From: Oligoflexia bacterium
Lineage (GTDB): Bacteria; Bdellovibrionota; UBA1018
Length of the DNA: 35,757 bases
Direction: 5' to 3'
NCBI GenBank assembly: GCA_023700925.1
Contig: JAMPXZ010000007.1
Span: 1 to 35,757 of the forward strand
How positions within the stretch are numbered: the stretch's first letter is position 1; every line of letters begins with the position of its first letter. The notes under the pieces were generated by a model. The model worked only from the letters and a program-made list of their open reading frames with translations. It did not search any database and was not told the DNA's origin. This document shows, piece after piece, positions 759 through 24,600 of the stretch. A program made the position numbers and the translations under genes.

Positions 759-787
759 TAAGATTAGTTAAAACTTTGGAGGCTGTC

Positions 788-2122
788 ATGAAACGCATTC
801 TCTTCCCTCTGACCATCGGAATGATGCTGATGGGATGTGAAACCCGGGAAAGCATGATGCGCTCTGAGGGCGAGCTGAATTTCCGAGGAGACCATTTCGC
901 GGAGGCCAGCAGCTTCCGGGGGGCTGCGCTCGAAGGTCGCGCCTGCTCGGCGGCGGACGCTTCGCTGATCGGGCTTTCGGGCAGCTCCGTTGAGATCTCG
1001 GGCAACGCCAAGGTCGAAGGAAAAGTGATTCTGCTGGATCGCTCCAAGCTGCGCCTCTCGGGGAATGTGCAGCTCCCGGGCGGGATACTGCGAGACGCTA
1101 GTGTAGAGATCAAGCAGAGCGGGCATCCTCAGGTCGGTGCCATCACGACGGCTGACCTTTCGGCCGTCGAGCGCGAAGCGGAGGCGCTTGCCGCTTTCGC
1201 GAGCTCCCAGACTCCTTCTCAGCGGCTCGAGAAGATTCAAGGCTCGCTCGTGATCGAAGGCGCGCCGGGGCTCAATGTCATTTCGGTGGACCGCGATCTT
1301 CAGCTTTCCGGTTTGGAGTCGCTGGTTCTTCGCGGGAGCTCCGCATCGGTTTTCGTTTTCAATGTCGAAGGGGATCTCCGGATCTCCGGCCTCGCCTCGA
1401 TCTCGGTGCAGGGTGGGGCGCTGGCGTCCAACGTGCTTTTCAATTTCGTCGGCCGCGGTCGTGATCTGGCTTTGAGCGGGCAGGGGAAGGTCGCCGGCAG
1501 CTTCGTAGCGCTGGAGCGCGGCGCTGCGATCAGCGGTGGCGGTGAGTTCTCGGGGCTTGTGATCGCCGGTCATGGCTTGAAGTTGTCCGGCAACGGCAAG
1601 GTCCTGCATGCTGCGGGGTTCTGCGTGGAGGAGCCTGCGCCGGAGCCCACGCCGACGGTAACGCCGGAACCTACGCCTACGGTAACGCCGGAACCTACGC
1701 CTACGGTAACGCCGGAACCTACGCCTACGGTAACGCCGGAACCTACGCCTACGGTAACGCCGGAACCTACGCCTACGGTAACGCCGGAGCCTACGCCGAC
1801 GGTAACGCCGGAACCCACGCCGACGGTAACGCCGGAACCTACGCCGACGGTAACGCCGGAGCCTACGCCGACGGTAACGCCGGAGCCTACACCGACGGTA
1901 ACGCCGGAACCCACGCCGACGGTGACGCCGGAGCCTACGCCGACGGTGACGCCGGAACCTACGCCCACGGTGACGCCGGAACCTACGCCCACGGTGACGC
2001 CGGAACCTACGCCTACTGAAACTGTCACTCCTGATGACAGCGAGAATCCCACTCCCGAGCCGTCGCCGACCCCCACTCCTTGCGTGGGTCTCACCTGCGG
2101 CGGTGGCGTGATCGGGATTTAA
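788..2122 (+). CDS. Lipoprotein with choice-of-anchor-A-like domain and Pro/Thr repeat stalk
   Basis: About 444 residues. The start at 788 is chosen because GGAGG (778-782) sits 5 bases upstream; an in-frame TTG at 776 would overlap that site. Residues 1-17 form a lipoprotein signal with lipobox LMGC, so the mature protein should be lipid-anchored at Cys17. Residues about 45-275 are beta-rich with recurring LSGN/ISG turns and the pattern NVLFNF (about 215-220), [20 protein letters not shown], which resembles choice-of-anchor A family domains of surface proteins. From residue 286 there are 15 exact EPTPTVTP octapeptides plus a degenerate copy, then a short Pro-rich tail ending [13 protein letters not shown]. 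The stalk is likely an extended spacer. Odd point: the repeat lies C-terminal to the globular domain, while the lipid anchor is N-terminal, so the stalk may project outward or contact the cell wall. Function unknown. Confidence 0.85.
1643..2032 (+). repeat. 24-bp in-frame minisatellite (15 exact octapeptide units plus one degenerate)
   Basis: The array encodes EPTPTVTP in each 24-base unit from 1643 to 2002, followed by [10 protein letters not shown] (2003-2032). Units differ only by synonymous third-position changes (gaa/gag, cct/ccc, gcc/gct, gta/gtg) that run in blocks along the array: a GTA-rich 5' part and a GTG-rich 3' part. This is what slippage or unequal exchange produces. Copy number is probably variable between strains. 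Confidence 0.95.
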
Positions 2123-11502: not shown

Positions 11503-12624
11503 ATGAAGCGATCCATGAGCCTGCTCCTTTTCGTTGCGGTGAGCGCTCTTGCGCAGGTGGCGCTTGCGGCGCCGCGCGGGTGGGACGGCAGCTACGAGGC
11601 AGAAGATTTCACGTACGTGAGCGCGCGGACCGTCGCTGAATCGATCTCCGATCTTGGTTCGGTGACGCCTGAGATCGATCCGCGAAAGGTCCCGGGGCTC
11701 CGCCCCGAGCAGTACCTGCAGCCGTCGAGCTGCCTGGGTTACGCCGGCCCGCTCGGCCCTTTCGGGCCTTTGGGGACGCTGGGTCCGATGGGCATGGCGG
11801 ACGTGAACTCTTTGCGAAGAGTGTGGAAGCTCATGCCGCCGGACTCGTTTGAAGATTGGGTTGATTCCATCCGAATCCATCCGGAAGGACCCTTCTCGAT
11901 GAAAGGCCCCCTGGGCAAGGACGGACCGCTCGGAGCTGCCTACTTCGACGGCGACCTTCTTGACGTGAATGATTTTGCCGTGCAGCTCCGCGCGATGGGG
12001 CTTTGGACGGCGCTCGGGCCCATCGGTCCTCTCGGCCCGCTGGGGCCGCTCGGGCCGCTCGGGCCTTTGGGGATCGGCGCCCTCTATGAGACGGACCGCG
12101 ATGGCAACTACCGCGACCAGGGCCGCATCGTGCGAAGGGCGCTCGTGCCGTACTCGCGGGGGAAGGTTCGCGACTACGAGCTTGTCGAGCGTTACCGCGA
12201 GGATTATTTCGAGAAGAAGTCCTTCTCGCGCGATCCGCTCGAGAACCCGGCGACCGACGCCTCCTTCATGATCGACGGGACGATCGGCGCGCTTGACTGG
12301 GCGGGGGACAGTTTTTATTTCAGCTCCCATCGGGACCAGCTCGTCACGGTGACGCTTGTCCCGGAGCGCGTCTTCGATGACTTCGATCTGTTCATCACGG
12401 ACGAAAGCGGGCGCCTGATTGCCAGGTCCGACACTCTCACGTCCGGTTATGTCGAATGGATCCAGCTGAAAGTTCCCGCCGGGACGACGCTCAGGGCCGA
12501 GGTGAGGCTGCGGGCGTCGACGTTGAGGCTCGGCTGCACTTATCGGCTTATAGTGACCCCCTCGACCGAGTATCTGAACGCGACCAACGTCGATGGGCCG
12601 CATGTCCGTGCCTGGTATGAGTGA
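11503..12624 (+). CDS. Exported Gly-Pro-Leu repeat protein with C-terminal PPC-like domain
   Basis: 373 residues. GAGG lies 7 bases before the start. Signal peptide ends in ALA|A. Three separate tracts carry collagen-like G-x-y triplets: residues 82-97 (GPLGPFGPLGTLGPMG), 129-144 (GPFSMKGPLGKDGPLG) and 172-192 (GPI then five GPL). The y position is Leu rather than the Pro usual in collagen, so a collagen triple helix is uncertain. The last 100 residues (SFYFSSHRDQLVTVTLVPER, FDDFDLFITDESG, a final LIVTP strand) resemble a bacterial pre-peptidase C-terminal (PPC) beta-sandwich. Probably a cell-surface or secreted protein with fibrous tracts interrupted by globular segments. Function unknown. 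Confidence 0.82.
   Translation: MKRSMSLLLFVAVSALAQVALAAPRGWDGSYEAEDFTYVSARTVAESISDLGSVTPEIDPRKVPGLRPEQYLQPSSCLGYAGPLGPFGPLGTLGPMGMADVNSLRRVWKLMPPDSFEDWVDSIRIHPEGPFSMKGPLGKDGPLGAAYFDGDLLDVNDFAVQLRAMGLWTALGPIGPLGPLGPLGPLGPLGIGALYETDRDGNYRDQGRIVRRALVPYSRGKVRDYELVERYREDYFEKKSFSRDPLENPATDASFMIDGTIGALDWAGDSFYFSSHRDQLVTVTLVPERVFDDFDLFITDESGRLIARSDTLTSGYVEWIQLKVPAGTTLRAEVRLRASTLRLGCTYRLIVTPSTEYLNATNVDGPHVRAWYE
12016..12078 (+). repeat. In-frame 9-bp Gly-Pro-Leu repeat
   Basis: Units of ggNccNctN encode GPI followed by five GPL triplets and a final GIG. Codons vary synonymously (ggg/ggt/ggc, cct/ccg, ctc/ctg/ttg), so the peptide rather than the DNA sequence seems to be conserved. Shorter tracts are at about 11746-11793 and 11887-11934. 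Confidence 0.85.
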
Positions 12625-22917: not shown

Positions 22918-23026
22918 GGTTCTTAGCCTCCTGTGCGTGAGATGAAAGTATACAGGATTCAAGCCTGGAAATCCGCGTCGAAGACTGACTGGGCTTTTGT
23001 GTTGCGATGCGATAGAAGGGGGCCGC

Positions 23027-24352
23027 ATGACTCGCAAGACTATTCGCAGACCCAAGGCATCATCTGAGGACTTCAGGCCCAAGGAAATTCCGGTGTCGCC
23101 GGTTCTGACGGCGTTTCAACGAATCTGGTCGAGACTTTTTGAGGAGCCGATCCACCTGGATTCCGCGCTCTCGAAGTTGCCGCCGTCGACCAAGAGTATT
23201 CTGGCGCAGATTCTTCCCGCGATCCTGCTGAGGCCCGCGTCACAGGCTGAAGCCATGGGAGTCGGGGTCCCGAGTGGCGAACCTTGGAAGCTGACGGCCC
23301 CGGAGCTGTCCCGCTGGAGGCCGGCAAGCTTCCTTTGCGAACGGATCCATGCCGGGATGGCGGGTGGAATCGCCTCCTCCACCCCGAACCGCGCGGACTT
23401 CCCTCCGCAGATGCTGGAAGAATGGGAGGCGTCCTTCGGCGCCGAAGGTTGCGCCGGTCTCGTCGAGGCTCTCGGCAAGGAGCCGCCGCTCGGAATGCGG
23501 GCTTCGCGCAGGGTGGGCCCGGCCGCGCTCCTTTCGGAGCTGAAAAAGGACAGCCCGCTTCCCGTGAGGAGCGAGCTCTCGGATCTGAGCCCGCTGGGCA
23601 TCCGGCTCTCGGGCTATGCGCCGGTACTCGGCACGAAGGCCTATGAGCGGGGCGACTTCGAGATCCAGGACGAGGGATCCCAGGTGATGGCGCTTTTCGC
23701 GCTCTGGCCCGAGCGGTTCGCGCCGCTTCTTCAGGAGTTTCCCGGCCCGGCCCGCGTTCCCCAGGGCGGGGCGGCCACCTGGTCGCTGCCCGAGGAGACG
23801 CCGGCCTGGACCGTCGTGGACGCCTGCGCCGGCGCCGGCGGCAAAAGCCTGGCGATCGCTGATGCGCTCAAGGGCAAAGGACGCGTTTTCTCCTACGATA
23901 CCTCTGAAAAGAAGCTTCAGGCGCTTCGCCGGCGCGCGACCCGCGGCGGCTACACCAATATCCAGGCGGTGGCCGTGAAGGAAGGGGCGGAAGAGGAGGT
24001 CGTGAGCCGGTTCAAGAGCCGCGCGAACGTCGTGCTCGTCGATGCGCCGTGTTCAGGCTGGGGCGTTCTTCGCCGCAACCCTGACATCAAATGGCGGCAG
24101 ACCCGCGAGGTCCTCGAGCGGATGCCGCGGATTCAGGCGCGGCTGCTCTCGCAGTACTCGAGCCTGGTGATGACGGGTGGAAGTCTGGTCTATGGAGTCT
24201 GCACGTTTCGTCCGGCCGAGACGCGCGCGGTTGTGAAGGAATTCCTGGCGGCCCATCCTGATTTTGTAGCCAAAGAAGGCGGTTTTCTGGGGCCTGGACC
24301 GTGTGATGGCTTTTTCATGCAGCGGTTCGAAAAGCGGAAATCGAACCCCTAA
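23027..24352 (+). CDS. RsmB/NOP2-family RNA (cytosine-5) methyltransferase
   Basis: 441 residues from ATG 23027 with AAGGGGG upstream. Motif [11 protein letters not shown] is near 265, motif [21 protein letters not shown] contains Cys342, and motif [12 protein letters not shown] contains Cys392. These two Cys are the release and nucleophile residues of the family. The N-terminal 230 residues are not a clear NusB-like domain as in RsmB; a segment [16 protein letters not shown] just before the catalytic domain is the usual family linker. Probably modifies rRNA or tRNA. The exact target base is not predictable, so no gene symbol is given. Confidence 0.9.
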
Positions 24353-24387
24353 AAATACAAAAGCCCCGGGCCGGAGCCCAGGGCCTT
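24351..24387 (-). terminator. Rho-independent terminator of the lysine-rich peptide gene
   Basis: The stretch 24361-24387 folds into a GC-rich hairpin (AAG-CCC-GGGC arms around a CGGA loop with small mismatches). Read on the minus strand it is followed by TTGTATTTTT (complement of 24351-24360), a U-rich tail. It starts about 22 bases after the peptide stop codon and abuts the stop of the convergent methyltransferase gene. Confidence 0.8.
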
Positions 24388-24409
24388 GATAAACCAAAGG
24401 CTGGAAGAA

Positions 24410-24484
24410 TTACTTCTTCGCTTTTTTCTTAGCGGGTTTCTTCTTCGCGACCTTTTTCTTGGTGGCTTTTTTCTTAGTGGCCAT
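24410..24484 (-). CDS. 24-residue lysine-rich peptide (AxKKK repeats)
   Basis: A complete small gene: ATG at 24482-24484, 24 codons, TAA at 24410-24412. GGAGG lies 9 bases before the start. The peptide begins MATKKKATKKKVAKKK and ends KPAKKKAKK: 14 Lys, 5 Ala, 2 Thr, with Val, Pro and Met once each, and no acidic or aromatic residue. It resembles the lysine/alanine-rich tails of histone H1-like bacterial proteins (Hc1, AlgP types), reduced to a tail alone. Such a peptide should bind DNA, RNA or other polyanions, so a nucleoid or ribosome role is a guess. Own promoter with A-tracts and own terminator indicate strong independent expression. It is easily missed by gene finders because of its size. 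Confidence 0.8.
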   Translation of the reverse strand: MATKKKATKKKVAKKKPAKKKAKK

Positions 24485-24541
24485 TTTGTGTTTCCTCCGT
24501 AAGAGCGAGTGCTTCGTTAACAACTGCATCGCTCAACTACG

Positions 24542-24600
24542 ATGTTACATTGATCCTTTCCGAGATCAAGAAGAGATCTCATTTTTTTCTATTTTTTTTC
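24542..24600 (-). promoter_or_regulatory. Promoter with A-tract UP-like element for the lysine-rich peptide gene
   Basis: On the minus strand: -35 TTGATC (24564-24569), 16-base spacer, -10 TAACAT (24542-24547). Upstream of the -35, at 24582-24599, run two A-tracts (AAAAAAAA and AAAAAAA), placed where an UP element would contact the alpha subunit. Predicted leader is about 50 bases. Confidence 0.55.

What the first reader, a model, noticed from the sequence alone, without database searches (positions are those of the whole stretch)
24351..24600. A self-contained gene for a 24-residue, 58 percent lysine peptide
Minus-strand GGAGG, ATG, 24 codons and TAA sit between an A-tract promoter and a hairpin plus U-rich tail. 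The peptide is AxKKK repeats with no acidic residue. Full-length H1-like bacterial proteins are known; a stand-alone 24-residue version with strong expression signals would be unusual and is below the usual gene-calling size.
Basis: partly seen in the sequence, partly recalled or inferred. Interest (0 to 1): 0.7.

Follow-up and report, generated by a model that had tools for sequence, protein, structure and literature searches.

The report
Conserved stand-alone 24-residue polylysine gene
A tiny, unannotated bacterial gene encodes a 24-amino-acid peptide that is 58% lysine; it is conserved with its own promoter and control signals across a whole order of Bdellovibrio relatives, and probably coats DNA the way histone tails do.

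Summary
Minus strand 24484-24410 encodes MATKKKATKKKVAKKKPAKKKAKK, with a strong ribosome site and an intrinsic terminator. It is a real, conserved gene. A stand-alone lysine-rich version (15-29 aa, median 23, no acidic residue in 50 copies read) was found in 48 of 55 genomes of the same order. Most sit at one syntenic locus, tail-to-tail with pyrD; in the window pyrD is gone and the 3' neighbour is an RsmB/F methyltransferase. Also shared: a gene-specific promoter (TTGATN-16-TAACAT; one copy in the 3.35-Mb genome), a leader hairpin before the ribosome site whose stem sequence changes while pairing persists, and the terminator. Substitutions are overwhelmingly synonymous. No Pfam, NCBIfam or Rfam family matches. 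Most likely function (inferred): an abundant polycation acting on the nucleoid, like an H1 or histone tail without a body. In another family of the phylum the same AxKKK motif is fused as the N-terminal tail of the bacterial histone, whereas the window's order has histones with short acidic tails plus this separate peptide. Expression and function are untested; RNA/ribosome binding is the main rival. Trypsin-based proteomics would miss it.

The parts
24581..24600 (-). A-tract upstream of the promoter (UP-element-like)
   Evidence: read directly; A-rich tract upstream of the -35 in most relatives; role inferred
24564..24569 (-). -35 hexamer TTGATC
   Evidence: conserved TTGATN/TTGCAN at 16-nt spacing across the order; TTGATN...GTAACAT occurs once in the 3.35-Mb genome
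24542..24547 (-). -10 hexamer TAACAT (preceded by G)
   Evidence: GTAACAT conserved across the order; start site inferred near 24535
24503..24534 (-). leader hairpin just upstream of the ribosome site
   Evidence: fold of 24537-24499 -11.9 kcal/mol, z -1.8; across 43 leaders mean z -2.7, 31 with p<0.05; 4 of 10 pairs with two-sided changes in a subset of 8
24494..24498 (-). Shine-Dalgarno GGAGG (in ACGGAGGA), 9 nt from ATG
24410..24484 (-). CDS, 24 aa MATKKKATKKKVAKKKPAKKKAKK plus TAA
   Evidence: found in 48/55 order genomes; mostly synonymous change
24352..24387 (-). intrinsic terminator: hairpin 24387-24360 plus U-rich tail
   Evidence: comparable hairpins in nearly all relatives
22997..24352 (+). 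convergent 3' neighbour: RsmB/F-type 16S rRNA methyltransferase; its stop touches the end of the terminator
   Evidence: PF01189 E 1.3e-32; synteny

Best explanation
A real, independently transcribed small gene makes a 24-residue disordered polycation (net charge about +14). Shown: conserved gene anatomy and purifying selection on a lysine-rich coding frame. Inferred: (1) strong expression from its own promoter and ribosome site, with the 5' hairpin stabilising the mRNA; (2) the peptide binds DNA electrostatically and neutralises or condenses the nucleoid, working like a detached H1 or histone tail in cells that also carry a bacterial histone whose own tail is acidic.
For: Gene: 48/55 order genomes, reversed-pattern control 0; synteny over several families; promoter, leader hairpin, ribosome site and terminator kept while stem sequences drift; the promoter motif occurs once in its genome; 7015 synonymous versus 633 nonsynonymous single-base codon differences over 946 pairwise comparisons (pS 0.65, pN 0.013), and e.g. 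G028/G032 7:0. It survives absence of the neighbouring pyrD in the window and in genus g26. Function: no acidic residue in 50 copies, Lys 43-67%. The same AxKKK motif is the N-terminal tail of histone-fold and SWIB proteins elsewhere in the phylum. Order histones have acidic tails: all 33 with a clear start, including the window genome's own.
Against: No expression, peptide or binding data. Lysine repeats arise easily, so similarity to tails and H1-like proteins may be convergent. AxKKK is also fused to a fumarase, so it is not specific to DNA proteins. Polycations bind RNA, ribosomes and polyphosphate as well. The protein-guided alignment of a lysine repeat lowers pN artificially. Not detected in 7 of 55 genomes, two of them rated at least 95% complete (G011, G013).
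Confidence: 0.5

Rival explanations
1. The peptide is a ribosome- or RNA-binding polycation, comparable in size and charge to the small ribosomal protein bTHX or to ribosomal protein tails.
For: Size, charge and lack of hydrophobic residues fit; features of a highly expressed small gene (strong ribosome site, own promoter and terminator); the neighbourhood holds an rRNA methyltransferase and a gene I read as the ribosome assembly GTPase RsgA.
Against: No match to any ribosomal-protein model in NCBIfam or Pfam. Length (15-29 aa) and repeat number vary freely, unlike a docked ribosomal peptide. Those neighbours are on the opposite strand and not co-transcribed.
Confidence: 0.2
2. A cytoplasmic or exported cationic peptide for another polyanion or for outside use: polyphosphate granule organiser (AlgP-like), envelope binding, or antimicrobial/predation factor.
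For: Polylysine binds any polyanion; AlgP, an H1-like protein, helps space polyphosphate granules (PMC9239181, title).
Against: No signal peptide or hydrophobic face; no secretion genes recognised next to it.
Confidence: 0.12
3. The functional product is the RNA: a small RNA, or a translation-sensing leader peptide with the lysine run acting as ribosome brake or lysyl-tRNA sensor.
For: Structured leader and terminator, ~180 nt.
Against: Change is concentrated at third codon positions (9322 of 13621 differences); leader stem sequences are not conserved; the downstream gene is convergent at the syntenic loci examined, so nothing lies downstream to regulate; no Rfam family reaches threshold.
Confidence: 0.05
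4. Chance or non-coding artefact: an AAG-rich stretch with fortuitous signals.
For: A 24-codon ORF alone is weak evidence.
Against: Order-wide conservation of frame, start, ribosome site and promoter, with reversed-pattern control at zero.
Confidence: 0.02

Closest known systems
Bacterial H1-like lysine-rich proteins (chlamydial Hc2, AlgP)
   Same: AxKKK/pentamer-type lysine repeats, length variation by repeat number; Hc2 varies 165-237 aa by lysine-rich pentamers (PMC2848022)
   Different: 5-10 times longer; no Pfam HC2 match for the 24-mer; this one is a single run of 4-5 units with a narrow length range
Coxiella burnetii ScvA
   Same: very small stand-alone basic protein; ScvA and Hq1 are described as small basic DNA-binding proteins enriched in the SCV, the form with a condensed nucleoid (PMC4766238); the 30-aa length is from memory
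   Different: sequence not compared here; as I recall not a lysine-alanine repeat; different phylum
N-terminal tails of bacterial histones
   Same: AxKKK-like basic tails of 9-46 residues on histone-fold proteins of another family of the same phylum; positively charged tails are the majority in bacterial FtF histones (PMC11390915)
   Different: here the tail-like sequence is a separate gene; the order's own histones have short acidic tails
Ribosomal protein bTHX
   Same: about 26-residue basic stand-alone peptide (from memory)
   Different: no NCBIfam match; bTHX contains Arg/Gly/aromatic residues (from memory), this is essentially Lys/Ala/Thr/Val

Membership tests
Chlamydial Hc2 / H1-like nucleoprotein (PF07382) | match to the curated profile | tested here: not met
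   no Pfam family for the 24-mer; a SWIB protein with an AxKKK-type tail gives only E 0.0068, below the cut-off
Chlamydial Hc2 / H1-like nucleoprotein (PF07382) | lysine-rich short-period repeats | tested here: met
   50 copies, Lys 43-67%, no D/E
Chlamydial Hc2 / H1-like nucleoprotein (PF07382) | binds and condenses DNA | not testable with these tools
   needs a binding assay
Bacterial histone (histone fold) | three-helix histone fold | tested here: not met
   24 residues of Lys/Ala/Thr/Val/Pro only, no room for the fold; no Pfam match
Ribosomal protein bTHX | profile match | tested here: not met
   NCBIfam, E up to 10: none
Attenuator leader peptide | regulated gene downstream on the same strand | tested here: not met
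   3' neighbour convergent in the window, in f1 loci and at the f5 locus G043
Known structured RNA family | Rfam gathering threshold | tested here: not met
   only RsaJ, 15 bits versus 100 required, on the opposite strand
ScvA-type tiny basic chromatin protein | chromatin association in vivo | not testable with these tools
   functional analogy only; sequence not compared

The most novel reading that the evidence does not exclude
A histone tail supplied in trans: in this order the bacterial histone keeps only a short acidic N-terminus and the lysine tail is a separate 23-residue gene that docks on histone-DNA complexes, whereas another family of the phylum carries the same AxKKK tail fused to its histone. 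Supporting pattern: acidic tails in all 33 order histones with a clear start, alongside the peptide in 48/55 order genomes, versus 29/30 basic histone tails and almost no stand-alone short gene in family f15.
Probability: 0.13. Interest if true: 0.88.

Novelty: new variant of a known kind. Interest (0 to 1): 0.64.

Why it matters
It would be among the smallest conserved chromatin-type proteins in bacteria, missed by gene callers (below their usual length limit) and by trypsin-based proteomics, so nucleoid inventories of this phylum would be incomplete. Together with the histones of the same genomes it offers a natural comparison of cis versus trans lysine tails in bacterial chromatin.

Tried and rejected
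Upstream in-frame start at 24529 (39 aa): rejected, as the extension runs through the leader hairpin and ribosome site, and relatives share only the downstream start. Antisense ORF 24386-24502 (+): rejected, since the frequent Lys third-base changes (AAA/AAG) become Phe/Leu replacements there. Leader peptide or attenuator: rejected by convergent neighbours. Terminator kept only for pyrD: rejected, because the gene persists where pyrD is absent. Rfam, Pfam, NCBIfam: nothing. Structure prediction was not run: a 24-residue lysine repeat would be disordered and uninformative. Literature searches found no description of this gene.

Full report
The feature. Reading the minus strand gives GGAGG at 24498-24494, ATG at 24484, 24 codons MATKKKATKKKVAKKKPAKKKAKK and TAA ending at 24410. 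Downstream is a 12-pair GC-rich hairpin with U-rich tail, 24387-24352. The 3' neighbour, an RsmB/F-type rRNA methyltransferase (PF01189), is convergent and its stop codon touches the end of the terminator.

Conservation. A protein search of 97 relatives gave short open frames in many genomes of the same family. A pattern requiring ribosome site, start and MATKKKA found 19 of 35 family genomes with none for the reversed control. A wider pattern, a profile, a pattern requiring a nearby stop, and inspection of the sequence next to pyrD raised this to 48 of 55 order genomes: f1 30/35, f5 12/13, f2 3/4, and the single genomes of f3, f4 and f6. Of the seven without it, several are incomplete or have pyrD at a contig end. 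Fifty copies read in full are 15-29 aa (median 23), 43-67% Lys, without acidic residues.

Synteny. The common order is RsgA - (alpha/beta hydrolase) - acyl-CoA dehydrogenase - RsmB/F - PyrD, convergent with the small gene, followed by a sensor kinase in much of f1. PyrD was recognised by reading its sequence and used as query; it was not run through Pfam. Convergence with PyrD is also seen in f5 (G043) and, at about 1.9 kb, in f3. The window and genus g26 have no PyrD between RsmB/F and the small gene, yet the small gene persists; the only PyrD hit in the window genome is a distant one (38%) on another contig. In f2 the gene is not next to PyrD, so orthology there rests on a promoter remnant and the peptide itself.

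Control elements. TTGATN or TTGCAN, 16 nt, GTAACAT is kept in most copies. TTGATN...GTAACAT at this spacing (plus or minus one) occurs exactly once in the 3.35-Mb window genome, at this gene. Between the inferred start site and the ribosome site a hairpin recurs with different stem sequences: 31 of 43 leaders at p<0.05 against dinucleotide shuffles, mean z -2.7; in eight f5 leaders 4 of 10 pairs show two-sided compensated change. The window leader alone is moderate (z -1.8). Terminators are present in nearly all copies with divergent stems.

Selection. In a protein-guided codon alignment of 44 copies, differences fall 2444/1855/9322 on codon positions 1/2/3; single-base codon differences are 7015 synonymous and 633 nonsynonymous. 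The alignment method favours Lys-Lys matches, so the ratio of 0.02 is likely too low, and the pairs are not independent. Ungapped pairs point the same way: G028/G032 7 synonymous, 0 nonsynonymous; same-genus pair G000/G001 6 and 3, with all 14 lysines kept.

Taxonomy. The organism is therefore an uncultured relative of Bdellovibrio (inference).

Function. Elsewhere in the phylum AxKKK repeats form long H1-like proteins and N-terminal extensions of SWIB proteins, of histone-fold proteins and of a fumarase. The histone assignment rests on my reading of the sequence and its resemblance to published bacterial histones; Pfam gave no histone hit for it. In f15, 29 of 30 histones read have tails with more basic than acidic residues. 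In the window's order all 33 histones with a clear start have short acidic tails (two further entries lacked a convincing start and three could not be read), including the 73-aa histone of the window genome. Fusion in one lineage and separate genes in another suggests, but does not prove, a shared role in chromatin. In B. bacteriovorus a histone is the most abundant protein of the nucleoid fraction (PMC10627809). I therefore favour a nucleoid polycation (0.5), with RNA/ribosome binding as main rival (0.2).

Limits. No expression data; homology among lysine repeats outside the syntenic group is not demonstrable; other phyla were not searched; the f15 histones read are those most similar to the query, so the contrast in tail charge is not an even sample.

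Noticed in passing
G000:C29:15261-15482 (locus L305:562-783): The window genome encodes a bacterial histone of 73 aa with an acidic N-terminal tail (MENENQQTEGETTGGE...), next to an FKBP-type peptidyl-prolyl isomerase-like ORF.
   Followed up: partly
L345-L374 (family f15): Histone-fold proteins with lysine-rich AxKKK-like N-terminal tails of up to 46 residues, in contrast to the acidic tails in the window's order.
   Followed up: partly
L235 and L240: Class I fumarase-like protein with an N-terminal AxKKK repeat extension in two genomes.
   Followed up: no
L282, L283, L285, L287, L291-L295: A second set of 23-33 aa stand-alone AxKKK genes in family f13, mostly with a different leader (CAACAACAAC...) and CTAGGAGG-type ribosome site, also with terminators.
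   Followed up: partly
G010:C105, C110, C150 (L184-L186): Three near-identical extra copies of the short gene (MATKKKATKKAAPKKKTAKKK) in one genome, with another promoter region and AGGAGGCCTC upstream, besides the syntenic copy.
   Followed up: no
window 776-2122 (+): ORF with a long run of tandem PEPTPTVT repeats towards its C-terminal end after a secreted-looking domain.
   Followed up: no
window 11503-12624 (+): Secreted-looking ORF with GPLGPLGPLG collagen-like repeats.
   Followed up: no
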